Part shown: positions 2-16,001 of the stretch, piece after piece | Position numbering within the stretch: the first letter of the stretch is position 1 | Layout of the letters: every line of letters begins with the position of its first letter | Source: a virus | Virus record (IMG/VR): IMGVR_UViG_3300022934_000207 | Location: 1 to 22,788 of that record | Length of the DNA stretch: 22,788 nt | Direction: 5' to 3' (one strand) | Translations under genes and position numbers: made by a program | The notes under the pieces: model-generated | What the model was told of the DNA's origin: nothing | Seen by the model: the letters and a program-made list of their open reading frames with translations, nothing else | Database searches by the model: none

Positions 2-3000
2 GATAAAGATAAGAAACCAATTGCTGGTAATACAGGTACAACATACTTTGTAGTAAGTGCAAATAATGTCACAAGTACATCTTGGCAGACATTTAGAAAT
101 CACACAACAATTCCGACATCTCATACTCCATATAATGGCTCAGATGGTGGCGGTGTAAGATATGTCAGATTAAGAATTCTTTATAACTATAGCTCTGGTG
201 GAGCATTACGAGAATTTACTGCTCCTGTATTAAAAAGAGTTAATGCATTTAGTAATATTAGAACTGACTACGATATCTGGGGCTCAGTATTCCGTGATGT
301 AAATAATTCTGCATACTACTTGGATATGGACAGTGTATCTTATCTGAATGATATTCGTCCTAATATCATGTATGATAGAAATGATACAAACTATTATGTC
401 AATCCAGCTACAGGTTCTAGATTAAAAGGTTCTAATGGTTCACTTGTTATTCAAGGTTCTTGGCCACAATTAAGAATTGCTCAAGATGACGGAACAGCAG
501 ATGCATCTATTAACTATGATGCTGGTTCTGGTTATCGTAAATGGAATGTTGGTCCAGGCGCTGGTACTTCTGAAGGTGATGAATTTGGATTTGCTGTTTA
601 TTCAAGTACTAGAGGAACACATTACGGTACCAATTTAAGAATTAATGCTCTTACCGGCCGTGTACAGGTTGGTGATAGAGATAATCCTGCATATAATTTA
701 GATGTTGTTGGAACTGGTTATGCTCGTGGTGATTTCCGTGCTCCAGTTTTCTATGATGCTAATGATACAGGATATTTTACAAATCCTAATTCATCTTCAA
801 GATTCCATAATGTAGAAATAAGAAACTACGGTTTAAGATTAATGCGTAATTATACCCATAATGGTATATGGTTCAATGGTGGAACTGACCAGAATCACGT
901 ATTATGGAATACCTATTATGGTGGCCCTGCTGGCCGAGGTGGTGCAGGTTCAGGCCGTGATGGTATTCGTTGGAATGTTTATGGTGGTATTGAATTACGT
1001 GGTGGTTCAAATGGTGCTTATCCATTAATTATTGCTAATAATTCAAGTGGTAATTCAAATAACCACACAGTAGAATTATACGCACATAATGTCAAGCAAT
1101 TTGAAACTGAAAGTGGATATGCTCTTGCTCCTAATCAAATGCGTTCACCAATTTTCTATGATAGTAATGATACGAATTATTATGGAAACTTTGCAAGTAC
1201 ATCTAGATTTGCAGATGTCACAATAGAAAGAAGTCAGGCTGATGCTGTATTAAGAGTCACAAGAACTGGTTCTGCTCCCGGAAACTACAAAACTGCAATA
1301 TTTGAGAACCAATATGGTAATCATTCCTGGGGTGTCGTTGCAGAGGTTCGCGTTGGCGGTGTTTCAGGTACTGATAAACCTGCAATTCTTTACTCATCTG
1401 GACAAACTGGAACTACATGGACAACAGGATTCAAAAGAACAGATAACGACTTTGCTGTTGTTGAAAACAGAGGTTATAGAAATGGTGGTTGGGGAACTCC
1501 AAGATTAACAGTTTCTCCTGGTGGTAATGTCACAATTACAAATGGTATGTATGCTCCTATCTATTATGATAGTAATGATACATCATACTACCTTGACCCA
1601 ACTGGTGATACAAAAATTAGAAGATTGTATATCTGGCAAGATAAAGTCTGGGATACAAGCTTAGGTAATTCAACCGACTCAGGATATTTAAACTTAGGTT
1701 GGCGTGTAATGAATCAGGGTAGAAAAGTTTACGCTGATGAAGAATTTACAGATGGTACTAACGGTACAAGCATTTATAACAATGCTGGTGGTTCTGCTCT
1801 ATCAAGAGCAAGACTTACTGGCCAATCAGATGCTCCTAACGAAAGTGGAGTTGTTTACAGATATACTAGAAGTTCTGGTTCAAATGGAACATCGCCAGGA
1901 TATGGTGGTTTCTACTTTGCGATTGGTACAGCTAGAAATAGAACAATTGTTTGTAGATGGCGCGCAAGGATGCCAGCTGGTAAATCATTTAATTTTGCTT
2001 CGAATGCTTATGGTAGTAATGCAAATTCATATTGGTTAACTGACAATGTAGGTACTGGAAAATATGAAGAATACGCATATGTAGTTCGCTGTGGTAATGG
2101 TGGTTCATTCAGTTCTACAATGTTCTTCTATGTGACTGGTGGTTCATCTACTGGTACACAGTTTGACCTTGCCTCTGCAACATGTTATATTGACACAGAT
2201 CACGATTTACAACAATCAAGAAGATATTGGGCGAATAGAGATGTTCGTGGTGATGTTTTTTATGATGTAAATAATACTGGTTATTATGCAGACCCAAATA
2301 GCACATCACAATTTAGACGAGTTGACTTAAATGACCAGCTTCGAAATGAAAGTGGTGCTCCGCATTACTTCTATACAGGTGCTGGAAACTTAAGAGGTTA
2401 TATACGGGCAACAGACACAAACGACCAACACCTCCATATTGCTACATCTGGTGGTGAGGATATTAAATTCTCTGATGGTGGATTTACATCAGCTTGGAAT
2501 ATGATTATTCGTGGTAATGGTCAAACACTTATTAGTTCAAGAATTGACACACCTATCATGTACGATAGGAATGATACGGGTTATTATGTTGACCCGAATG
2601 GTTCTTCTCAATTTAGAGCAGTATATGCTAATGATTGGTTTAGAGCTCAAGGTTCAACAGGTTTCTATTTTCAATCTTATGGATATGGTATGCGTTCTGC
2701 ACATTCAGAAGGCAACTCTTATGGTAATGTTTCAACATACGGAACTGGTAGAAATGGGTGGTCTGGATATGGCATTGATAGAAAATGGTGTATCATGTCA
2801 TCTGGTTCTGGAAACAGTAATAACTTTGGTATACACAATAATGATTCAAGTTGGTTATGGTATTGGAATGGTTCTTATACAAATACTAGATTAGGTTATT
2901 TCCAGAACGAATCAAGTTTTAGAGCTCCAATTTTCTACGACACTAATAATACAGCTTATTTCTTTAATGGAGCTTCAGATAATAGTACAAGATTCCGTGG

Positions 3001-4963
3001 TGTTCAACCAGAAACAATGGCCTTCATGGCATTGCCTGGCCATACAAGAAACTCTGCTGAATACTATCGTGCAAGACCTCGTATAACAGGAGATACCAAC
3101 TACTGGACTGGTGCAATGGGTTGGGGTCGTATCGACATGAACGCTGTTGCAACTTGGGGTTCAGGCTTTATTGATTCTTGGAGTAATCCACCTAACCAGC
3201 CTTCAGGTACATCTCACTGGGTTGGTGTTCAAGCCTTCCACTATAGAAGTAGTAATACTCGTGGATATGGTTGGCAGATGGTTGGTGGTCCAATCACAAA
3301 CCTTAGATTTAGAAGTTCATGGAGTGGTTGGAGAACTTGGAGAACAATTCCAATATTAGATGAGAATAGTGGTAATGGCGGTTCAATGTATGCTGGGCGT
3401 TATTACGACTCTAATAATACAGGTTATTATGGAGACTTCGCATCAACATCTAACCTTTATAGATTACACGTACAAGACGAAATTCATATCAGTAGAGGAA
3501 ACAGAACTGGTGCTGGTTTAATTCTTGCTGACGATGGTGATATTGTTGATAATAATGACGGATACGCTGCATTAAGATTCTCAAGTGGTATCTATGTTTC
3601 TTCAGGAAACCGAACAGGAAACTCTGGAAACTGGAGACACAGATTACATTCAAATGGTAATGCTGAATCTACATCTTCAATGCGTGCTCCTATCTTCTAT
3701 GACCGAAATGATACCGGTTATTATCTAGACCAGAATTCAACAAGCAACTCTGCTCTTAGAATTAGAGGTGGTGCACTACACGGACCTAACCCATCTTGGG
3801 GTAGATATCTTGCTGTTGGTACAAATGGTCACTGGTCTAGCTCTTACGCTTCGGTTGCAACAACTAATGGTAATCTTCACCTTGATTCGCAGGGTGGTCG
3901 CGACTTATATCTTCAGTGGTATGTTGGAAGAACAGTTTATGTAAGTGGTTCTATTCAGGCTACAATTTACTACGATAGAAATAATACAGGTTATTATTCA
4001 GATCCGAATAGTACTTCAAGATTAAATCAGCTAAATGTAAACAGAATTAACTCACCATACGCTGGTGGAAACTCTGGTATTACAAGAAGTAGTTCACCAT
4101 ACTCATACGGCTTCCAGGAATCTGGTAGTTGGAGTTATCCATATCCGGATATGGTATTCCAGTATCATACTGGTGTATCTATGGCAGCTAACCCATCGTA
4201 TGGTGGTATTAGATTCTTTAATGACTATAATAGTGGAACTGTAAGATTCCAGGTTAATGGTTCTTCAAGTTATACATTTGCAAATACATGGCTCCAAGTT
4301 GGTGGTGGCGGTGTCGGTATCTATGATGGATATAATGGTGCTCACTTCTATCCAAACAATGCTACAAACTATGGTTCTTGGAACTTCTTAGGAAGCAGAA
4401 GTGGTTGGAGAGGTATTGCATTCTCTGATGCTGGATATGACCCGCACTTAATGTGGGATAGCTCAGGTAATGGTGGTTGGTATCATGAAGACTTAGGTCG
4501 TTGGTTATTCTATCATAGCCGTAGCAGAAACTGTACTGGTGTTGCTTCATCAAGTACTGTGTCCGGTTATCGTATGAGAGTTAACGGTTCGCTTTACTGT
4601 AATGGTAATATCGTTGCTTATTCTGATAGACGTAAGAAAAAGAATATCGTCACAATTGATAATGCTCTTGATAAAGTATTACAATTACGTGGTGTATATT
4701 ATGAGAGAAAAGAAGATTTAGTTGACGAACGTGACGACCTATATAAAGGCAGACAATTAGGTATGATTGCTCAGGAGGTCCAAGAAATTGTACCTGAGGT
4801 TGTATCATATGCCGAAGAGCTTGATGAATATGCACTTGATTATCCTAAGATGGTCGGTCTACTTGTCGAGGCTCACAAAGACCAACAAGAGATTATAAAT
4901 AACCAACAAGAACAAATTGATGAATTAAAGAAACTTGTGAATACATTAATGGAGAAACTATAA
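2..4963 (+). CDS. Long tail fibre protein with C-terminal S74 chaperone domain (5' partial)
   Basis: The frame is open from base 2, so the true start lies upstream; the TTG at 320 and ATG at 326 are internal. The visible 1653 codons encode a Gly/Asn/Ser/Tyr-rich beta protein with eleven copies of a motif close to PIFYDxNDTGYYxDPNSTSRF, separated by variable domains. The C-terminus matches the peptidase S74 intramolecular chaperone of endosialidases and fibres. It starts at YSDRRKKKNI, with the probable cleavage Ser at 4622-4624 followed by Asp and, 4-6 residues on, lysines that could supply the catalytic dyad. It ends in a heptad-rich coiled coil (KDQQEIINNQQEQIDELKKL). In this family the chaperone trimerises the fibre and is then released; here that would free about 113 residues. 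The protein is probably a host-recognition fibre. Its position upstream of small virion genes fits, but which T4 fibre it replaces is unclear. Confidence 0.9.
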   Translation, partial: DKDKKPIAGNTGTTYFVVSANNVTSTSWQTFRNHTTIPTSHTPYNGSDGGGVRYVRLRILYNYSSGGALREFTAPVLKRVNAFSNIRTDYDIWGSVFRDVNNSAYYLDMDSVSYLNDIRPNIMYDRNDTNYYVNPATGSRLKGSNGSLVIQGSWPQLRIAQDDGTADASINYDAGSGYRKWNVGPGAGTSEGDEFGFAVYSSTRGTHYGTNLRINALTGRVQVGDRDNPAYNLDVVGTGYARGDFRAPVFYDANDTGYFTNPNSSSRFHNVEIRNYGLRLMRNYTHNGIWFNGGTDQNHVLWNTYYGGPAGRGGAGSGRDGIRWNVYGGIELRGGSNGAYPLIIANNSSGNSNNHTVELYAHNVKQFETESGYALAPNQMRSPIFYDSNDTNYYGNFASTSRFADVTIERSQADAVLRVTRTGSAPGNYKTAIFENQYGNHSWGVVAEVRVGGVSGTDKPAILYSSGQTGTTWTTGFKRTDNDFAVVENRGYRNGGWGTPRLTVSPGGNVTITNGMYAPIYYDSNDTSYYLDPTGDTKIRRLYIWQDKVWDTSLGNSTDSGYLNLGWRVMNQGRKVYADEEFTDGTNGTSIYNNAGGSALSRARLTGQSDAPNESGVVYRYTRSSGSNGTSPGYGGFYFAIGTARNRTIVCRWRARMPAGKSFNFASNAYGSNANSYWLTDNVGTGKYEEYAYVVRCGNGGSFSSTMFFYVTGGSSTGTQFDLASATCYIDTDHDLQQSRRYWANRDVRGDVFYDVNNTGYYADPNSTSQFRRVDLNDQLRNESGAPHYFYTGAGNLRGYIRATDTNDQHLHIATSGGEDIKFSDGGFTSAWNMIIRGNGQTLISSRIDTPIMYDRNDTGYYVDPNGSSQFRAVYANDWFRAQGSTGFYFQSYGYGMRSAHSEGNSYGNVSTYGTGRNGWSGYGIDRKWCIMSSGSGNSNNFGIHNNDSSWLWYWNGSYTNTRLGYFQNESSFRAPIFYDTNNTAYFFNGASDNSTRFRGVQPETMAFMALPGHTRNSAEYYRARPRITGDTNYWTGAMGWGRIDMNAVATWGSGFIDSWSNPPNQPSGTSHWVGVQAFHYRSSNTRGYGWQMVGGPITNLRFRSSWSGWRTWRTIPILDENSGNGGSMYAGRYYDSNNTGYYGDFASTSNLYRLHVQDEIHISRGNRTGAGLILADDGDIVDNNDGYAALRFSSGIYVSSGNRTGNSGNWRHRLHSNGNAESTSSMRAPIFYDRNDTGYYLDQNSTSNSALRIRGGALHGPNPSWGRYLAVGTNGHWSSSYASVATTNGNLHLDSQGGRDLYLQWYVGRTVYVSGSIQATIYYDRNNTGYYSDPNSTSRLNQLNVNRINSPYAGGNSGITRSSSPYSYGFQESGSWSYPYPDMVFQYHTGVSMAANPSYGGIRFFNDYNSGTVRFQVNGSSSYTFANTWLQVGGGGVGIYDGYNGAHFYPNNATNYGSWNFLGSRSGWRGIAFSDAGYDPHLMWDSSGNGGWYHEDLGRWLFYHSRSRNCTGVASSSTVSGYRMRVNGSLYCNGNIVAYSDRRKKKNIVTIDNALDKVLQLRGVYYERKEDLVDERDDLYKGRQLGMIAQEVQEIVPEVVSYAEELDEYALDYPKMVGLLVEAHKDQQEIINNQQEQIDELKKLVNTLMEKL
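287..4033 (+). repeat. Eleven dispersed FYDxNDTGYY protein repeats in the fibre gene
   Basis: About 20-codon copies of the pattern [PI][IV]FYDxN[DN]TxYYxDPxSTSxF occur with the Tyr-Asp pair (Arg-Asp in copy 1) near 293, 371, 752, 1157, 1565, 2261, 2561, 2936, 3404, 3698 and 3971. The first two copies are only 26 codons apart. The others are separated by 91-232 codons of unrelated Gly/Ser/Asn-rich sequence. The invariant parts are YD, N[DN] and the two aromatics. Several copies are preceded by MRAP or FRAP. The pattern suggests that each copy is a structural joint between interchangeable shaft or knob domains. Divergence at the DNA level indicates old duplication and not a recent tandem repeat. 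Confidence 0.85.
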
Positions 4964-5868: not shown

Positions 5869-6201
5869 ATGACCTATTCCTGGACCATTATAAAGTTTGA
5901 AACCAGAGACCAAGTCAATTCTGATGGCGTCACTTTGGAGAATGCTGTCGTCACTGTAAAGTGGAAACGCGACGGGGTTGATTCAAATGGTACAACAGGT
6001 TCAGTTTTGGGCTACACCGTCCTCTCAGCAGAGACTGTAGCCCAAGGCGATTTTGTTGCATTTGACTCTCTTACAGAAGAATTGGTTATCGGCTGGATTG
6101 AAAACTCACTTAGCGCGGAAAGATTGGCTGAATATAATACAGCAATTCAAGAGCAAATCAATAAACAATCTTCCACAGAGCGCACCCCGCCTTGGGCATA
6201 A
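5869..6201 (+). CDS. Small phage protein, second of a duplicated pair
   Basis: The 110-aa protein shares the core fold of the preceding gene: YSWTI at residue 3, RDQVNSDGVTLENAVV at residues 13-28, FVAFDSLTEELVIGWIE at residues 62-78. It ends in PPWA and lacks the acidic tail that follows the LPW of its neighbour. The gap between the two genes is 14 nt, with a weak TAGG Shine-Dalgarno at 5857-5860. No promoter motif lies between them, so they are probably co-transcribed. The stop codon is immediately followed by a strong sigma70 promoter, making this the last gene of its unit. The function is unknown; co-retention of two diverged copies suggests a heteromeric partner or separate roles. Confidence 0.8.
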   Translation: MTYSWTIIKFETRDQVNSDGVTLENAVVTVKWKRDGVDSNGTTGSVLGYTVLSAETVAQGDFVAFDSLTEELVIGWIENSLSAERLAEYNTAIQEQINKQSSTERTPPWA

Positions 6202-6277: not shown

Positions 6278-7315
6278 ATGCATGATTTGCGCCACCATGG
6301 CCTTGTACATTACGCCCTGAAAAGAGGCGGAAGTATCCATCCAATTACACTACCTAAGGAATTAACTGGCGAAACTGGGATTATGAATCCTTCCATTTAC
6401 GTACATAATGGAAAGATTCTATTAAATGTTCGCCACGTCAATTATACACTTTACCATTCAGAAGGTAAAAAATTCCCACATACTTGGGGTCCTCTCCAAT
6501 ATATCCACCCAGAAAATGATGTATGTCTAGCGACACATAATGTAATGTGTGAGTTAGATACAAATATGAACATGCTCAGTGCTGGTCGTATCAAAATGAA
6601 TCTGGATACAGGTGAACCAACTTGGAATTTTATCGGTTTAGAAGATGGTAGATTATTCTGTTGGGAAGACCGACTTTTCCTTTGTGGAGTTCGTAGAGAT
6701 TGCTACGACGATAAAGGTAAAGGTCGTATGGAAATGTGTGAAATAGAATTTATTGATGGTTTATGGCAGGAGGTTTCACGTAATCCTATACCGGCTCCTG
6801 GTGACGATGGCACATATTGTGAAAAGAACTGGATGCCAATCCTTGATATGCCATGGCATTTTGTTAAATGGTGTAATCCAACCGAAGTTATTAAATACGA
6901 TATTGACACAAGAACAACAACTACAGTTCACTTAGATGAGTCATCAAGAATAGATGCTCCGCGTGATTATAGAGGTGGTTCACAAGTAGTTCCTATTGGT
7001 GATAATAAACGACTTGCATTTACTCACGAGATTGATTTATTAAAAGACCCATTTTATAGAAAAGATGGTCATTATAATCATCGTATTCTTGTATGGGACG
7101 AAGATTGGAATATCATTCATAAAACAGAGGATTTCCATTTTATGGGAACTCAAATTGACCCAACTACAGGTTATGAATATAATATTGAATTTGTGACAGG
7201 TATGTGTTTTCTGAATGGAAATGTTTATATTAGTTATGGTTATCAGGATAATGGTACATTTATTTTGAAAATGCCAGAAAAAGTATTTTTTGATTTTGTA
7301 GGGAGGCTGGCATAA
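6278..7315 (+). CDS. GH130-like five-bladed beta-propeller enzyme
   Basis: The 345-aa protein carries the motif series of five-bladed propeller glycoside hydrolases/phosphorylases (GH130/DUF377-like): NPSI (37-40), GLEDGRLF (120-127), EKNWMPI (182-188), RGGSQ (232-236), THEID (249-253), IEFVTGM (303-309) and SYGYQDN (319-325). Canonical GH130 has EDPR where this protein has EDGR. Family members cleave or phosphorolyse mannosides; related propellers are often encoded beside glycosyltransferases or FkbM methyltransferases in glycan loci. It is probably cytoplasmic, as no signal peptide is visible. It is the first gene after the P1 promoter, and its stop overlaps the next start by one base (TAATG). 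The exact reaction is unknown. It may trim, phosphorolyse or simply bind a glycan. Confidence 0.75.
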   Translation: MHDLRHHGLVHYALKRGGSIHPITLPKELTGETGIMNPSIYVHNGKILLNVRHVNYTLYHSEGKKFPHTWGPLQYIHPENDVCLATHNVMCELDTNMNMLSAGRIKMNLDTGEPTWNFIGLEDGRLFCWEDRLFLCGVRRDCYDDKGKGRMEMCEIEFIDGLWQEVSRNPIPAPGDDGTYCEKNWMPILDMPWHFVKWCNPTEVIKYDIDTRTTTTVHLDESSRIDAPRDYRGGSQVVPIGDNKRLAFTHEIDLLKDPFYRKDGHYNHRILVWDEDWNIIHKTEDFHFMGTQIDPTTGYEYNIEFVTGMCFLNGNVYISYGYQDNGTFILKMPEKVFFDFVGRLA

Positions 7316-8541
7316 TGTTGCAAGAGTTATTGAACAAACACTGTATGGACCCAAAAAATCCGAATAAAATATTTGATTTGGCAAAAGAATATGACCGACT
7401 TGAACAAGGTGCTATGGCTGTATCTTTATATCTTAAGGCGGCCGACCTTACAGAGGATAAATTATTACAATATAAATGTATGATTGGTATTGGCAATTGC
7501 TATTGGAGACAAGGTAATAGAACATATACAGTCGAAGGTGCATTTCAAGATGCTGCAGCTCTCATTCCGGAAAGACCTGAAGCACATTATTTCCTCGCTG
7601 GTCTTTGTGCTGAAAGACAATTATGGAAAGCCTCATATTTACATGCAAAATTAGCTAGACTGTTTAATGTCAGCGATGATATCGATGTAGGATATAAAGG
7701 TCGTAAGGCTTCTGCTGTACAGGAAGCAATTGCAAAATGGTATATTACTGGAACACAAGAAGGTAAACATGCTTTATTTGACCTCAAATTTAAATCTGTT
7801 CTTGATGATGAATTATACAATAAAGTTAATACTCTATTAACAGGAATTTTTTATCCAGATACAATTCCATATTCTGTAAAAGATAGAGAAAGATTTAAAT
7901 ACCCATTCCCAGGTTTTGATACAATTCAAAAAAATTATTCTAAACATTTCCAAGATCTTTTTGTATTATCAGTACTGAATGGTAAACAAAATGGAACATA
8001 TTTAGAGATTGGTTCCGGTGACCCGTTCGTGCATAATAATACAGCATTACTTGAAACTGAATTTGGTTGGAAAGGAATTTCGATTGACAACCAAGGTAGT
8101 TTGTGTTATAATTTTAAAGAGAATAGAAATAATACAGTAATATGTGCTGATGCTACTGAAATCGGATATGCCGATTTATTTGACAAACATTGCATGGAGC
8201 CTGTAATTGATTATTTACAAATAGATTGTGATGAACTTTCAGTTGATATTCTAGAAAAAATTCCATTTAATCAGTATGGGTTTAGAGTTATAACATTTGA
8301 ACACGACAAATACAGACTCGGTGATGAAATTAGAGATAAGGCTAGAGAACATTTAAGACAATTTGGGTATATTCCATTGGTGAATGATGTAGCCTTTACA
8401 GAGGAGTGTTCATACGAGGATTGGTATGTACATCCAGCATTGGTAGATATTCCAGAGAAAATGAAAACTGATAAATCAGTAAATTTTGTATGGGAATATT
8501 TTATGAAACCTTTAACTGAAGAAAATGAGAGAAAATTATGA
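7315..8541 (+). CDS. TPR-like protein with FkbM-type SAM methyltransferase domain
   Basis: This 408-aa protein has two parts. Residues 1-150 are helical and TPR-like (DLAKEYDRLEQGAMAVSLYL, then CMIGIGNCYWRQG and EAHYFLAGLCAERQLWKASY). Residues 200-400 look like an FkbM/Methyltransf_21 methyltransferase: SAM-binding loop YLEIGSGDP (229-237), acidic SIDN (256-259), CADA (277-280), LQIDCDE (301-307) and ITFEHDKY (326-333). FkbM enzymes O-methylate sugars or polyketides; the TPR part may dock a partner or substrate. The start is set by GGGAGG at 7301-7306 and the 1-nt overlap with the upstream stop; the end overlaps the next gene by ATGA, so all three genes are probably translationally coupled. 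A glycan methyltransferase is likely, but the substrate is unknown. Confidence 0.75.
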   Translation: MLQELLNKHCMDPKNPNKIFDLAKEYDRLEQGAMAVSLYLKAADLTEDKLLQYKCMIGIGNCYWRQGNRTYTVEGAFQDAAALIPERPEAHYFLAGLCAERQLWKASYLHAKLARLFNVSDDIDVGYKGRKASAVQEAIAKWYITGTQEGKHALFDLKFKSVLDDELYNKVNTLLTGIFYPDTIPYSVKDRERFKYPFPGFDTIQKNYSKHFQDLFVLSVLNGKQNGTYLEIGSGDPFVHNNTALLETEFGWKGISIDNQGSLCYNFKENRNNTVICADATEIGYADLFDKHCMEPVIDYLQIDCDELSVDILEKIPFNQYGFRVITFEHDKYRLGDEIRDKAREHLRQFGYIPLVNDVAFTEECSYEDWYVHPALVDIPEKMKTDKSVNFVWEYFMKPLTEENERKL

Positions 8542-9287
8542 TAACTGTGGTTGCAACAGGTGGATTTGACCCGATTCACTCTGGTCACATTGAATATTTA
8601 AAAGATGCAAGTACATTTGGAACAAGACTAGTTGTAGGAATTAATTCCGATAGCTGGTTAAAGCGAAAGAAAGGTAGATATTTTATGACTTGGGAAGAGC
8701 GTTCAGCCATTGTTGAAGCATTATCTTCTGTCGATAAAGTTCTATCGTTTGATGATAAAGATGATACTGCGATACATTGCTTGGAACAAGTTAAAACATT
8801 ATATCCAAATGATACTATTATATTCGTAAATGGTGGAGACAGAACATCAGATAATATTCCAGAAATGGCTGTGGAAGGTATTGAATTTGAGTTTGGAGTT
8901 GGTGGTGATAATAAGAAAAATTCCTCAAGCTGGATTCTAAAAGAGTGGGCACAACCTATGGTGAAAAGAGCATGGGGTAATTATACAGTATTACATAATG
9001 GTCCTTCATGGCAAGTAAAAGAATTATCATTTGACCCCGGATTAGAATTAAGTGACCAAAGACACGAACACCGGTCGGAACATTGGCACATTGTTGATGG
9101 TATAATTGAAATGAGAATCCAAACAAAAACAAAAACCATCACACAAGAATTTGGCCCTGGCGAAAGCATTGATATTCCAAAAGGTGCTTGGCACAAAGCA
9201 AAAAATGTGGGAATTAAACCTGCAAAAGTAATTGAAGTTTGGCTAGGAAATCTTCTTTCTGAAGATGACATAGAGCGACGAGACTAA
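8538..9287 (+). CDS. Nucleotidyltransferase fused to phosphomannose isomerase-type cupin
   Basis: The 249-aa protein has two domains. Residues 1-135 are an RfaE2/TagD-superfamily nucleotidyltransferase: GGFDPIHSGHIEYL (8-21, with the HxGH pair H14/H17), GINSDSW (34-40), EERSAIVEAL (53-62) and NGGDR (98-102). Residues 142-249 match the type II phosphomannose isomerase cupin of AlgA/ManC: AWGNYTVL (145-152), the metal-site block Q174-x-H176-x-H178-R-x-E181-H182-W, IPKGAWH (213-219, with H219 as a further likely ligand) and a terminal SEDDIER. In AlgA this cupin interconverts fructose-6-P and mannose-6-P beside a different, GT-A-type nucleotidyltransferase. Here the partner is a HxGH-type transferase, suggesting activation of a sugar phosphate (perhaps heptose- or mannose-like). 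It is the last gene of the P1 operon and overlaps the methyltransferase by 4 nt. Confidence 0.85.
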   Translation: MITVVATGGFDPIHSGHIEYLKDASTFGTRLVVGINSDSWLKRKKGRYFMTWEERSAIVEALSSVDKVLSFDDKDDTAIHCLEQVKTLYPNDTIIFVNGGDRTSDNIPEMAVEGIEFEFGVGGDNKKNSSSWILKEWAQPMVKRAWGNYTVLHNGPSWQVKELSFDPGLELSDQRHEHRSEHWHIVDGIIEMRIQTKTKTITQEFGPGESIDIPKGAWHKAKNVGIKPAKVIEVWLGNLLSEDDIERRD

Positions 9288-9609: not shown

Positions 9610-10602
9610 ATGGCAATTAAGGTCAATGGCGTAACTGCCATAAACAATTCTAAAGTACTTCAAAATATTGGAAGAGCAGATAACTGTAGATATAATGATT
9701 TCCATCCTGCAGGAATTGTTGATATGGGTACCAGTACACAAATTACCAACGGAGATCCAGTAAAGTCTAAAACATTAACAGCAGATACAACTTTTACACA
9801 TTCTAAGATCTTAAATTCCCCTAATTGCGAAATACTTTTGCATCTGGATTTAAGTGCTGACGGTTGGACTCCAACATTTCCATCAAATTATAATTTTCCA
9901 GCAACCCCAGCTTGGTCGGCTCATAGATACTGGATGATAACAATACTTGAACGCACCACCGACGGTGGCGCATATCTATGCACAGCACAAGGCTTTGATG
10001 AAGGTCCATATTCTGGTTCAGGTTTAGGTGGAAGTGGAGCATTTTTAACCTCTACATGGACCACACCAAATGGGTGGCGCACACAAGATATTTACTATTC
10101 TGGATACGGATTTCCAGAAACATATTGTTATATTTCATTCCAGCATGATGCTGCAAATCAAAGAGTCATTGTCACTTATGCTCACGGCAACAGTAGTCAA
10201 CCAACACAGTTTCAGCCCGCCGTCTATGTGACCTATGGTGGATTAAGCAATATTTCTACTGTTAGAGTTCAATATAATGTACAATCACAATCTTGTATTG
10301 GAGATTGTAATGCAAGTAATTATGGATTCGGCCCGACACCAGTACAGGATAATAAACTTTCTGGCTCATATTATACACTTTCTGGTTTAGGAACACAAAC
10401 ATTTGCCTGGATGGCACAAGCAAACCCAAATACTTTTCAAAATAATGATACAACCACAACAGCAGATTTTAGTTCAGCAAATCCAGATTTTCGCATTGAA
10501 ATTGTTGATAGTGTAGAAGGAACATTTACCTCGACTTCTGAAATGTCTAGTTTTCATGGTGTTAATTTAAGGGCATATATAGGTACAGTACCAATTAAAT
10601 AG
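9610..10602 (+). CDS. MAIK-type adhesin-like virion protein, paralogue A
   Basis: The 330-aa protein starts MAIKVNGVTAINNSKVLQNI, an N-terminal tag I recognise from fibre-like proteins of marine phages, where it probably attaches the protein to the virion. Residues 40-82 are a beta segment with TLTADTTFTHS. Residues 84-110 hold the family signature GWTPTFPSNYNFPATPAW followed by RYWMI. The rest is Gly/Ser/Thr/Tyr-rich and beta-like, as expected of a binding domain (QPAVYVTYGGLSNISTVRV). Two neighbours (10612 and 11345) share the start and the RYW signature. A tail or head surface adhesin is most likely. Function is inferred from composition and position between fibre-region and neck genes. 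Confidence 0.75.
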   Translation: MAIKVNGVTAINNSKVLQNIGRADNCRYNDFHPAGIVDMGTSTQITNGDPVKSKTLTADTTFTHSKILNSPNCEILLHLDLSADGWTPTFPSNYNFPATPAWSAHRYWMITILERTTDGGAYLCTAQGFDEGPYSGSGLGGSGAFLTSTWTTPNGWRTQDIYYSGYGFPETYCYISFQHDAANQRVIVTYAHGNSSQPTQFQPAVYVTYGGLSNISTVRVQYNVQSQSCIGDCNASNYGFGPTPVQDNKLSGSYYTLSGLGTQTFAWMAQANPNTFQNNDTTTTADFSSANPDFRIEIVDSVEGTFTSTSEMSSFHGVNLRAYIGTVPIK

Positions 10603-10611
10603 GTTTAAGAT

Positions 10612-11091
10612 ATGGCAATAAAAATCAATAATATTGAGATAATGGACGATTGGACTTCTTCTTATGTTATATTGGAGGATTTGAATAATATCCAAGGAAC
10701 ATATCAGGGTTGCATGCGCGTCAGCGAAAGTAGCTATGGTATTAGTGATGGTGGTCCTTTCAGGATGTCTTTCGGCGGCGACTATACACGTATGTCTGTT
10801 TCTAGTCAAAACATAACGATTACTATGCCAGATTATGGGTCGCCCGCCGGTGACCCAAGATCTGGAGGTAATTCTGGTTCAAATTTAAACGCACACGCAG
10901 GTGGTGGTTATGCAGTATTATTCGATATGAGCAGTAATGGTTATGACATTACATGGCCTACAGAATATAAGTGGCCTAATGATTCTGAACCAGATTGGAC
11001 AACTGCAAGATATTGGTATATACACACAGTTTGCTATTCAACAAGTATTATATTTGCTACCGCAACACCATTCGATGCACTTTCAACGTAG
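10612..11091 (+). CDS. MAIK-type adhesin-like protein, short paralogue B
   Basis: The 159-aa protein starts MAIKINNIEIMDDW and shares the family signature at residues 109-138 (GYDITWPTEYKWPNDSEPDW, then RYWYI). It stops about 20 residues after that signature, where paralogues A and C continue for 220-250 more residues. It therefore has only the attachment and core part, with a Gly-rich loop (residues 76-99) inserted before the signature. The gap from the previous gene is 9 nt. It may be a functional short form, or the remnant of a longer gene that lost its variable C-terminal domain; the ORF after it does not look like the missing half. Confidence 0.7.
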   Translation: MAIKINNIEIMDDWTSSYVILEDLNNIQGTYQGCMRVSESSYGISDGGPFRMSFGGDYTRMSVSSQNITITMPDYGSPAGDPRSGGNSGSNLNAHAGGGYAVLFDMSSNGYDITWPTEYKWPNDSEPDWTTARYWYIHTVCYSTSIIFATATPFDALST

Positions 11092-11099
11092 GATATAAG

Positions 11100-11345
11100 A
11101 TGGCTTTTACAGGAAACTCAATTAATATAGAATTTACACTTACAGATAACACAGGTAATACATCTCCTGTATACCAGTCTGTTAAGGAACTAGAACCGAT
11201 TGATATGCCAGACCAAATAAGTTTAATTAAAGACGTGGCAAAAGGGATTTTAACAAGTTCTGCAAATACAATTGTTTCGGTAGCATGGACACATTCATGT
11301 GGTCGATGTGAGACTAACGGTTTATTAGAAAGAGGTGGTGAATAA
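11100..11345 (+). CDS. Small unknown protein with a CxxC pair
   Basis: The 81-aa protein begins at the ATG at 11100, 8 nt after the previous stop. An upstream in-frame start at 10995 would overlap paralogue B heavily and is less likely. The N-terminal half is beta-like (NSINIEFTLTDNTGNTSPVY), followed by a helix (MPDQISLIKDVAKGILTSS) and then a C-terminal tail holding HSCGRCETNG. A single CxxC could bind metal as a dimer or form a disulfide. The stop overlaps the next start by one base (TAATG), so it is probably translationally coupled to paralogue C. I do not recognise the family. Confidence 0.6.
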   Translation: MAFTGNSINIEFTLTDNTGNTSPVYQSVKELEPIDMPDQISLIKDVAKGILTSSANTIVSVAWTHSCGRCETNGLLERGGE

Positions 11346-12460
11346 TGGCTATTAAAATTAATGGTGATTTAATTATATCTAATACTAGAGATATGAGTGA
11401 TATTAGTATTGATTATCAACCAGATTCCAGTACAGAAGGCCTTTTTGACCCTTTCATTTTTACCCCTGAAGTAAATACTATTACAAGTACTATTAATATG
11501 GGCACGTCATATATGACTGGTGTAATGACCGCAAATACAACCTATACAATTAGTGGTACTACTAATGTTGGTACTTGTTCTGTAGTAACGCTCGACACGA
11601 CTACAACAGGCCATATACCTAGTTTTCCTAATAATGTTTCTTGGGAAAGTAATATCGAGCCGACATGGAGTGATTGGAGATATTGGGTAATTACCATGGC
11701 TCAAGTTGCAAATACCGAAGTAAGAGCAGCAGCTGTTGGTTATGTTTCAAACGCATCTGCACCAACTGAAACAATCGCGCTTGAAGGTACTACTGGGTCA
11801 CCTGAAGCCTTTTTTGATAAAGCAACAAGTGACACGCATGATTTTGTTGCGGGTTGGACTTTTAATTCAGACGGAAATGTATACAAATACGAAAGCATTT
11901 ATAACGTTGGCGGTGGTGGTACATATTTACATGATAGTACAACTTGGAATAATATTACCCCATCTCAAACATATTGGATTCAAGTAAATAATCATGATAG
12001 CAGAACCTTATCAGTAAGTGATAGTGACGATATTGGTGAATGGATTTCCTTGAGTTCTACTAGAACATTTAGATATAGAGATGGACAAACCTTAAATACA
12101 TATTCTTCAAGATATGGGACAATGAAAGTAGATATCGCTGAAAGAGATTTTGGAACTGAACAACATAGTACTTCCACTCCTCAATATTATTCAGCTACGA
12201 TAGGTTATACAGATGGAGAAGGATTTCCAGAAACAATACATAACGCTTATTGGAATGGTACTCTTGTATACAGTGGTGGGATTGCCTCTACTACATCTGA
12301 AGGTGATATTTTTCTAGGTACTGATGGAAATTATTATCGTACAGGAACTTTACAGCAGCAATTTGGAAATCCAACTACATATTCTTACGCAATACAACAA
12401 GCAACTTTTACCATTCTGGCTACTGGTTATTATAGAGTTAATTGGGAGGGCAACGCATAA
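11345..12460 (+). CDS. MAIK-type adhesin-like virion protein, paralogue C
   Basis: The 371-aa protein starts MAIKINGDLIISNTRDMSDI, close to paralogue A. It has the TMTANTTYT-like strand (VMTANTTYTISG, residues 60-71) that parallels TLTADTTFTHS in A, and the family signature at residues 89-117 (GHIPSFPNNVSWESNIEPTW, then RYWVI). The C-terminal 250 residues differ from A and are Ser/Thr/Tyr-rich beta sequence, consistent with a swapped or fast-evolving binding domain. It overlaps the upstream stop by one base and is itself followed by a 1-nt overlap with the next gene. It is probably a surface or tail adhesin; the ligand is unknown. Confidence 0.75.
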   Translation: MAIKINGDLIISNTRDMSDISIDYQPDSSTEGLFDPFIFTPEVNTITSTINMGTSYMTGVMTANTTYTISGTTNVGTCSVVTLDTTTTGHIPSFPNNVSWESNIEPTWSDWRYWVITMAQVANTEVRAAAVGYVSNASAPTETIALEGTTGSPEAFFDKATSDTHDFVAGWTFNSDGNVYKYESIYNVGGGGTYLHDSTTWNNITPSQTYWIQVNNHDSRTLSVSDSDDIGEWISLSSTRTFRYRDGQTLNTYSSRYGTMKVDIAERDFGTEQHSTSTPQYYSATIGYTDGEGFPETIHNAYWNGTLVYSGGIASTTSEGDIFLGTDGNYYRTGTLQQQFGNPTTYSYAIQQATFTILATGYYRVNWEGNA

Positions 12461-15575: not shown

Positions 15576-16001
15576 ATGAAAGTAGGATTTACAGCTAGTA
15601 CATTTGATTTATTACATGCTGGACATGTACAAATGTTAAGAGAGGCAAAAGAACAGTGTGACTATCTAATTTGTGGTTTACAAATGGACCCAAGCTCTGA
15701 TAGGCCAGATAAAAATTCACCTGTTCAAACTGTGGTTGAAAGATATACTCAACTTAAGGCGGTAAGTTATGTTGATGAAATTATACCTTATTCAACCGAA
15801 AGGGATCTAGAAGATATCCTTGAAATGTATACAATTCATGTTCGTATACTAGGAGAGGAATATCGCGATAAGGATTTCACAGGTAAAGATATATGCCGTA
15901 AACGAGATATAGACCTTTACTTTAATAAGAGAGACCATCGCTTTAGTAGCAGTGGTTTGAGACAAAGAGTTTGTGATAAAGAAAAGGATTATGAGTACTA
16001 A
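15576..16001 (+). CDS. TagD-like glycerol-3-phosphate cytidylyltransferase family protein
   Basis: The 141-aa length is typical of TagD-type cytidylyltransferases. Motifs are FTASTFDLLHAGHVQMLREA (5-24, HxGH with H14 and H17), VVERYTQL (53-60), ILGEEYRDKDFTG (91-103) and RFSSSGLR (122-129), the last replacing the RTEGISTT of TagD. In TagD these bind CTP and make CDP-glycerol from glycerol-3-phosphate. The substrate here could be another polyol or sugar phosphate. It sits between gp15 and gp16, behind its own sigma70 promoter and 2 nt before gp16. It is an auxiliary gene and probably works on a surface glycan or phospholipid precursor, perhaps together with the enzymes of the 6278-9287 operon, but that link is inferred. 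Confidence 0.85.
   Translation: MKVGFTASTFDLLHAGHVQMLREAKEQCDYLICGLQMDPSSDRPDKNSPVQTVVERYTQLKAVSYVDEIIPYSTERDLEDILEMYTIHVRILGEEYRDKDFTGKDICRKRDIDLYFNKRDHRFSSSGLRQRVCDKEKDYEY

What the first reader, a model, noticed from the sequence alone, without database searches (positions are those of the whole stretch)
8538..9287. HxGH nucleotidyltransferase fused to AlgA-type phosphomannose isomerase cupin
The sequence shows a complete RfaE2/TagD-like domain (GGFDPIHSGHIEYL, NGGDR) joined to a complete type II PMI cupin with its metal-site block Q-x-H-x-H-R-x-E-H-W and IPKGAWH. In AlgA/ManC the cupin is fused to a GT-A mannose-1-P guanylyltransferase. Here the nucleotidyltransferase is from a different superfamily, so this bifunctional enzyme could isomerise a phosphosugar and activate a sugar phosphate by a route other than GDP-mannose. 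I do not recall this pairing as a described enzyme.
Basis: partly seen in the sequence, partly recalled or inferred. Interest (0 to 1): 0.72.

Follow-up and report, generated by a model that had tools for sequence, protein, structure and literature searches.

The report
Phage fusion enzyme for activated mannose
A marine virus gene, also found in most genomes examined of the abundant ocean bacterium SAR11, joins a mannose-phosphate isomerase to a nucleotide-attaching enzyme of an unexpected family, and it may be how these organisms make activated mannose, a step for which no standard enzyme was found in them.

Summary
The fusion is real. The 249-aa ORF at 8538-9287 joins an HxGH nucleotidyltransferase (RfaE2/HldE-C-like) to a type II phosphomannose isomerase (PMI) cupin. 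It recurs full-length in over 120 viral loci and in bacterial chromosomes (SAR11, SAR86, SAR116). Proposed catalytic residues of both domains are invariant in 148 distinct fusions. Two clues point to mannose rather than heptose. First, of 12 fusion-bearing bacterial genomes searched, none has a canonical AlgA/ManC (GT-A) enzyme or a type I PMI, yet six have a GDP-mannose 4,6-dehydratase above cutoff and all have a phosphomannomutase-family gene. Second, in the phages the gene usually follows a protein predicted to have the GH130/GT108 fold (mannose-1-P / GDP-mannose enzymes) and an FkbM-like methyltransferase. Best reading: a bifunctional enzyme analogous to AlgA/ManC with a non-homologous nucleotidyltransferase, making NDP-mannose (probably GDP-mannose) for a phage glycan. 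Activity and nucleotide specificity are untested. A route 'other than GDP-mannose' is not favoured. No description of the pairing was found in the open-access papers searched. New variant of a known kind.

The parts
8538..9287 (+). Fused HxGH nucleotidyltransferase - type II PMI cupin, 249 aa
   Evidence: ORF; Pfam and NCBIfam; AF2 model pLDDT 91.8, pTM 0.65
8538..8957 (+). Nucleotidyltransferase domain, residues 1-140
   Evidence: PF01467; VIA-align TagD 1coz Z 16.6, HldC 5xf2 Z 15.1 at 36% identity
8577..8588 (+). HxGH motif H14-S-G-H17
   Evidence: invariant in 148 distinct fusions
8829..8843 (+). NGGDR motif, residues 98-102 (HldE has KGGDY)
   Evidence: invariant; HldE comparison
8922..8930 (+). 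S129-S131, counterpart of the C-terminal STT/ISSTT motif of the superfamily (by position, from general knowledge)
   Evidence: S130 and S131 invariant, S129 in all but two bacterial rows
8958..9284 (+). Type II PMI cupin domain, residues 141-249
   Evidence: PF01050; VIA-align Thermococcus PMI 7zvy Z 17.4, 7zvm Z 17.3; 42% identity to E. coli ManC C-terminus
9048..9074 (+). Nine-residue type II PMI motif LSDQRHEHR; S172, Q174, H176, R179 correspond to Ser95, Gln97, His99, R408
   Evidence: PMC9602691; invariance
9078..9080 (+). E181, predicted metal ligand
   Evidence: spacing of PMI ligands in PMC9369236; invariant
9192..9194 (+). H219, predicted metal ligand in cupin motif 2
   Evidence: PMC9369236; invariant
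7315..8541 (+). TPR plus FkbM-like methyltransferase, immediately upstream
   Evidence: PF05050 E 0.0033 in a relative, below cutoff; adjacent upstream in 90 of 122 viral loci
6278..7315 (+). GH130/GT108-like beta-propeller protein
   Evidence: AF2 pLDDT 69.6, pTM 0.76; Foldseek and VIA-align; order GH130-like > FkbM-like > fusion in 69 of 86 loci
320..4963 (+). Tail-fibre-like protein with S74 chaperone domain, possible recipient of the glycan (inference)
   Evidence: PF13884

Best explanation
A bifunctional enzyme that works like AlgA/ManC (PMI plus mannose-1-phosphate nucleotidyltransferase) but whose nucleotidyltransferase is of the HxGH superfamily instead of GT-A. The metal-dependent cupin (Q174, H176, E181, H219) interconverts fructose-6-P and mannose-6-P. 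A phosphomannomutase of the cell makes mannose-1-P. The HxGH domain couples mannose-1-P to an NTP, most likely GTP, giving GDP-mannose. In the phage the product, or mannose-1-P itself, would feed the neighbouring GH130/GT108-like enzyme and other phage glycosyltransferases, and the FkbM-like methyltransferase would methylate the glycan, which may sit on the tail fibre or on the host surface. Shown here: the fusion, intact motifs, relationships, genomic context and the lack of canonical enzymes in the genomes searched. Inferred: every catalytic activity, the nucleotide and the recipient.
For: Cupin: motif residues and metal ligands of type II PMI are invariant in 148 fusions, the closest solved structures are PMIs, and the SAR11 cupin is 47% identical to the E. 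coli ManC cupin. HxGH, KKG, NGGDR and SS motifs are invariant. In 14 bacterial genomes there is no type I PMI and no GT-A GMP-PMI, while GDP-mannose 4,6-dehydratase is over cutoff in six fusion-bearing ones and PGM/PMM genes are in all. Of 25 Pelagibacteraceae genomes none has GMP-PMI, 21 have the fused-type PMI match, 14 have GMD over cutoff. SAR11 G002 has only RmlA-like, GlmU and MurU-like GT-A enzymes. The fusion shares a glycan locus with GMD in G011. The phage neighbour has a predicted GH130/GT108 fold, a fold of mannose-1-P / GDP-mannose enzymes.
Against: No activity has been measured. The nucleotidyltransferase is closest in sequence to heptose-1-P adenylyltransferases, and I know of no GTP-using HxGH sugar enzyme. 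An RmlA-like or MurU-like enzyme of SAR11 might make GDP-mannose instead. Three GMD-bearing SAR11 genomes lack a detected fusion, and the fusion is present in five of six genomes without GMD; the genomes are incomplete. GT-A enzymes were enumerated in only 8 genomes. Fusion-bearing phages carry no GMD over cutoff. The GH130-like assignment rests on a model of moderate confidence.
Confidence: 0.5

Rival explanations
1. Heptose activation: the HxGH domain is a heptose-1-P adenylyltransferase (HldE-C type) and the cupin makes manno-heptose-7-P from sedoheptulose-7-P, replacing GmhA.
For: Closest families of the N-terminal domain are rfaE_dom_II and HldC; the chemistry of PMI and GmhA is alike (established knowledge).
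Against: Score 75.5 against a cutoff of 181.5; invariant NGGDR instead of KGGDY. SAR11 G001-G004 have no GmhA or HldE kinase match above weak sugar-kinase/SIS level. G005-G007, with strong GmhA and HldE-kinase matches, also have the fusion, so the two do not go together.
Confidence: 0.15
2. The nucleotidyltransferase acts on another phosphate (glycerol-3-P, another hexose-1-P or a phosphonate), and the cupin supplies or modifies that product instead of acting as a PMI.
For: HxGH relatives with solved structures use glycerol-3-P, choline-P or ethanolamine-P; substrate cannot be read from sequence.
Against: The cupin has the full type II PMI motif set and 42-47% identity to the ManC cupin; TagD model score 43.7 against 165.4.
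Confidence: 0.15
3. NDP-mannose is made but with another nucleotide (ADP-, CDP- or UDP-mannose) for a dedicated glycosyltransferase; GDP-mannose in SAR11 comes from another enzyme.
For: Known HxGH enzymes use ATP or CTP (established knowledge); an RmlA-like enzyme of uncertain specificity is present in SAR11.
Against: GMD over cutoff in 14 of 25 SAR11 genomes without a recognised GMP makes GTP the simplest choice.
Confidence: 0.12
4. The cupin is a structural or regulatory remnant and only the nucleotidyltransferase is active.
For: Close relatives of the nucleotidyltransferase without a cupin exist in cyanophages, SAR86, SAR116 and other alphaproteobacteria.
Against: All PMI motif residues and metal ligands are invariant over 148 fusions, unlikely for a decayed domain.
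Confidence: 0.08

Closest known systems
AlgA/ManC/PslB bifunctional GMP-PMI (TIGR01479)
   Same: Same type II PMI cupin at the C-terminus (42% identity for the window, 47% for SAR11, to E. coli ManC); same pairing of PMI with a sugar-1-P nucleotidyltransferase if the activity is confirmed
   Different: Nucleotidyltransferase is HxGH class, not GT-A; 249 aa instead of about 470; no GT-A domain match
HldE C-terminal domain / HldC heptose-1-P adenylyltransferase
   Same: Nearest sequence and fold relative of the N-terminal domain
   Different: Far below the equivalog cutoff, NGGDR instead of KGGDY, no kinase domain, cupin attached; GmhA and HldE kinase absent from SAR11 G001-G004
Monofunctional type II MPI of cyanophage S-SCSM1 and relatives (PMC9602691)
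   Same: Marine T4-like phages with a type II PMI domain and the same S/Q/H/R motif
   Different: Those retrieved in that study are described as monofunctional, without a nucleotidyltransferase
Stand-alone Thermococcus PMI (7zvm, 7zvy)
   Same: Best structural match of the cupin, Z 17.3-17.4; same ligand spacing
   Different: Single domain; His instead of Gln at the first ligand position
A0A218MKF4, 'cytidyltransferase-like domain-containing protein' of an uncultured virus
   Same: Top BFVD match and the only one listed that covers most of the fusion (TMq 0.68, 35% identity, 215 columns)
   Different: 432 aa; named only for the nucleotidyltransferase domain in the library used

Membership tests
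Type II phosphomannose isomerase (PF01050) | Match over the Pfam cutoff | tested here: met
   89.5 bits against 23.6, residues 141-247
Type II phosphomannose isomerase (PF01050) | Motif residues Ser95, Gln97, His99, R408 (PMC9602691) | tested here: met
   S172, Q174, H176, R179 invariant in 148 fusions
Type II phosphomannose isomerase (PF01050) | Four metal ligands with PMI spacing | tested here: met
   Q174, H176, E181, H219 invariant; Gln replaces the first His of Thermococcus PMI
Type II phosphomannose isomerase (PF01050) | M6P/F6P isomerase activity | not testable with these tools
   needs an enzyme assay
AlgA/ManC GMP-PMI (TIGR01479) | GT-A mannose-1-P guanylyltransferase domain at the N-terminus | tested here: not met
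   only model positions 357-460 match; 82.5 bits against a cutoff of 372.95
HldE-C / RfaE2 heptose-1-P adenylyltransferase (TIGR02199) | Whole-protein score over the equivalog cutoff | tested here: not met
   75.5 bits against 181.5
HldE-C / RfaE2 heptose-1-P adenylyltransferase (TIGR02199) | HxGH active-site motif | tested here: met
   H14-S-G-H17 (T at 15 in two aligned rows), H14, G16 and H17 invariant
HldE-C / RfaE2 heptose-1-P adenylyltransferase (TIGR02199) | Heptose pathway partners (GmhA, HldE kinase) in genomes that hold the fusion | tested here: not met
   absent from SAR11 G001-G004, present only in some others
TagD / GCT glycerol-3-P cytidylyltransferase (TIGR01518) | Whole-protein score over the equivalog cutoff | tested here: not met
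   43.7 bits against 165.4
GH130/GT108 (upstream neighbour 6278-7315) | Five-bladed propeller of the GH130/GT108 type | tested here: inconclusive
   model pLDDT 69.6; 25 of the first 25 VIA entries GH130/GT108-type, Z 18.8-15.2; PF04041 only below cutoff in one relative
GH130/GT108 (upstream neighbour 6278-7315) | Mannose-site Asn/Asp/Asp (N73, D131, D344 of BF0772; PMC4264767) | tested here: inconclusive
   candidates N37, D123 (in EDGR) and D324 invariant in 50 relatives; residue-level superposition not available

The most novel reading that the evidence does not exclude
This is a mannose-1-phosphate guanylyltransferase of the HxGH superfamily, a non-orthologous replacement of the GT-A enzyme, fused to the same PMI domain used by AlgA/ManC. 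It is the GDP-mannose source of SAR11 and other marine bacteria, and is carried by T4-like phages that build their own methylated mannosyl glycan.
Probability: 0.4. Interest if true: 0.75.

Novelty: new variant of a known kind. Interest (0 to 1): 0.6.

Why it matters
If right, it fills a gap in nucleotide-sugar metabolism of some of the most abundant bacteria in the sea: GDP-mannose-consuming enzymes are present, but no known GDP-mannose pyrophosphorylase was found in the genomes searched. It would show that the PMI domain was paired with two unrelated kinds of nucleotidyltransferase, and it would be, to my knowledge, the first GTP-using HxGH sugar nucleotidyltransferase. It also makes a testable claim about what marine T4-like phages build with their glycan cassette: a mannose-based, methylated decoration. 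One database relative is named only for its cytidyltransferase domain, so the PMI half may be easily overlooked.

Tried and rejected
Assembly or chimera artefact: rejected, since over 180 loci carry the same full-length fusion. A purely viral invention: rejected, since chromosomal copies form a SAR11 clade between polA and an MFS gene. Heptose pathway: disfavoured. Association of the fusion with GMD presence across 25 SAR11 genomes: looked for, none seen, because the fusion is near-core. GMD on fusion-bearing phages: none over cutoff in 14 records. A separate PMI cupin beside the cupin-less nucleotidyltransferases: none found. Sequence search of the GH130-like neighbour against PDB sequences: no significant match, so that assignment rests on a structure model. 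Papers describing the fusion: none found in the open-access library. A phage-isolate record with the full fusion: none (no record covers 80% of the query in one place).

Full report
What is there. The window is a whole IMG/VR virus record of 22,788 bp from a T4-like myovirus; terminase and portal are closest to Sinorhizobium phages phiM12/phiN3 and relatives at 53-58% identity. The ORF at 8538-9287 encodes 249 residues in one frame. Residues 6-105 match CTP_transf_like and residues 141-247 match MannoseP_isomer, both over the curated cutoffs. NCBIfam places the halves nearest to rfaE_dom_II and to the C-terminal part of the bifunctional GMP_PMI, each far below the whole-protein cutoff. An AlphaFold2 model from 50 homologues has mean pLDDT 91.8; pTM is 0.65, so the relative placing of the two domains is uncertain. 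The cupin's best structural matches are the solved Thermococcus phosphomannose isomerases (Z 17.4 and 17.3). The N-terminal domain matches TagD (Z 16.6) and HldC (Z 15.1, 36% identity).

How common. Of 122 viral loci examined, 121 carry a full-length fusion and the other is cut at a contig end. The genome collection holds it in SAR11, SAR86, SAR116 and other marine bacteria, mostly at 42-52% identity. Some MAG hits (L087-L090, L094, L095) are phage contigs, judged by their neighbours. In a tree of the nucleotidyltransferase domain the phage forms group together with a few sequences from bacterial bins, SAR11 forms its own clade, and several cupin-less lineages branch among the fusions, so fission or loss of the cupin has probably happened. 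No phage record in the GenBank-derived collection covers 80% of the query in one place; cyanophages carry the nucleotidyltransferase alone.

Active sites. In an alignment of 148 distinct fusions (84 viral and 57 bacterial rows tallied), H14, G16, H17, N36, D38, K44, K45, E54, R55, N98-R102, S130 and S131 of the nucleotidyltransferase are invariant. So are R144, W146, G147, K161, S172, Q174, H176, R179, E181, W183, H219, N223 and E233 of the cupin. A study of cyanophage MPIs lists Ser95, Gln97, His99 and R408 as functional motif residues of type II PMI (PMC9602691); these fall on S172, Q174, H176 and R179. The Thermococcus PMI metal ligands are H44, H46, E51 and H85 (PMC9369236); the same spacing gives Q174, H176, E181 and H219. 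The SAR11 cupin is 47% identical to residues 363-463 of the translated E. coli ManC (CpsB) segment, the window's 42%.

Which sugar? In 14 bacterial genomes (12 with the fusion, 2 with the nucleotidyltransferase alone) I looked for pathway genes. No type I PMI was found in any (it rings in 7 of 14 control genomes). No GT-A GMP-PMI was found; TIGR01479 matched fused cupins, stand-alone cupins in G005 and G012, and two very weak GT-A stretches. GmhA and the HldE kinase were not found in SAR11 genomes G001-G004 beyond weak SIS or sugar-kinase matches; G005-G007 have strong matches to both and also have the fusion. GDP-mannose 4,6-dehydratase is over the curated cutoff in six fusion-bearing genomes, and PGM/PMM-family genes are in all 14 (PgmG-like in SAR11 G002, below that model's cutoff). 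Among 25 Pelagibacteraceae genomes, none has a GMP-PMI over cutoff, 21 have the fused-type PMI match (one in an ORF cut at a contig end), and 14 have GMD over cutoff with 5 more at 370-405 bits. GT-A nucleotidyltransferases were enumerated in 8 genomes. In SAR11 G002 they are an RmlA-like protein, GlmU and a MurU-like protein beside an AmgK-like one; G001 also has an RfbF-like protein and a second, longer nucleotidyltransferase beside a UDP-sugar 2-epimerase-like gene. SAR11 genome G043 has GMD next to a GDP-L-fucose synthase-like gene just below that model's cutoff. In G011 one of two fusions lies in a polysaccharide locus with GMD, an SDR reductase, GT4-type glycosyltransferases and a sugar transferase, about 12 kb apart. 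So GDP-mannose users are present while no standard maker was found, and the fusion is the best candidate. This is a gap-filling argument from incomplete genomes, not a demonstration. The fusion does not track GMD: it is near-core in SAR11.

Phage context. In the window the order is tail fibre, small proteins, a 345-aa protein, a TPR/FkbM-like methyltransferase, then the fusion, with a 4-base overlap that 52 viral loci share. The triplet order holds in 69 of 86 loci with over 3 kb upstream held. The 345-aa protein has no Pfam match of its own. Its AlphaFold model (pLDDT 69.6, pTM 0.76) has GH130-type mannoside phosphorylases, mannosidases and related entries as its first 31 Foldseek matches. 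By VIA-align the first 25 entries, Z 18.8-15.2, are GH130-type or the GDP-mannose-using Leishmania MPT (GT108) enzymes; the best other fold is at 15.1, so the gap at the lower end is small. One relative reaches PF04041 at E 2.6e-4, below cutoff. Candidate mannose-site residues N37, D123 and D324, and basic residues R139, R140, K183 and H250, are invariant in 50 relatives; correspondence with GH130 (PMC4264767, PMC4599007) is by motif only. GH130 phosphorylases make or use mannose-1-phosphate (PMC4264767), and GT108 shares the fold with dual glycosyltransferase-phosphorylase activity (PMC8950772). Other phage loci hold GT8- and GT17-like genes, a DegT aminotransferase, an epimerase and an NDP-sugar dehydrogenase-like gene. 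Pelagimyophages are known to carry glycosyltransferases around the tail-fibre region and 'rfaE' among LPS-related genes, interpreted as host O-chain modification (PMC7029224). Whether the glycan goes on the virion or the host is open.

Conclusion. The most economical explanation is an AlgA/ManC-like enzyme assembled from different parts. The chemistry of the nucleotidyltransferase half (substrate mannose-1-P, nucleotide GTP) is the main unproven step; I put about 0.5 on the AlgA/ManC-like reading with GDP-mannose the likeliest product. Heptose, other phosphates, another nucleotide, or an inactive cupin remain as rivals. I did not find the architecture described, but only open-access papers could be searched.

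Noticed in passing
window 15576-16001: A second, separate HxGH nucleotidyltransferase (141 aa, TagD/HldE-like, 28% identical to the fusion over 81 residues) upstream of the terminase genes; relatives occur in 13 other phage loci.
   Followed up: partly
window 6278-7315: Protein predicted to have the GH130/GT108 mannoside-enzyme fold, with no Pfam match of its own, conserved upstream of the fusion in most of the phage loci.
   Followed up: yes
L158-L166, around locus position 6000: Cupin-less relatives of the nucleotidyltransferase sit in a conserved alphaproteobacterial/SAR11 gene order (next to genes that read as pyrE, pdxH, fabI and aroC); function unknown.
   Followed up: no
L051 5681-5995; L067 5645-5992: A small ORF resembling holo-ACP synthase by eye is inserted between the FkbM-like gene and the fusion in two phage contigs.
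   Followed up: no
window 9610-12460: Several consecutive ORFs starting MAIK(V/I)(N/S)G..., a family present in many copies downstream of the fusion in other phages (cluster 7, 180 copies in 59 loci).
   Followed up: no
L200/L204 1121-2644: A phage protein joining a MobA-like/NTP_transferase domain to an APH kinase-like domain, near the fusion.
   Followed up: no
L088-L090, L094, L095: Phage contigs binned into bacterial MAGs (Rhodobacteraceae Water_Bin34, Neomarinimicrobiota RS350), so searches of such bins can report viral genes as bacterial.
   Followed up: partly
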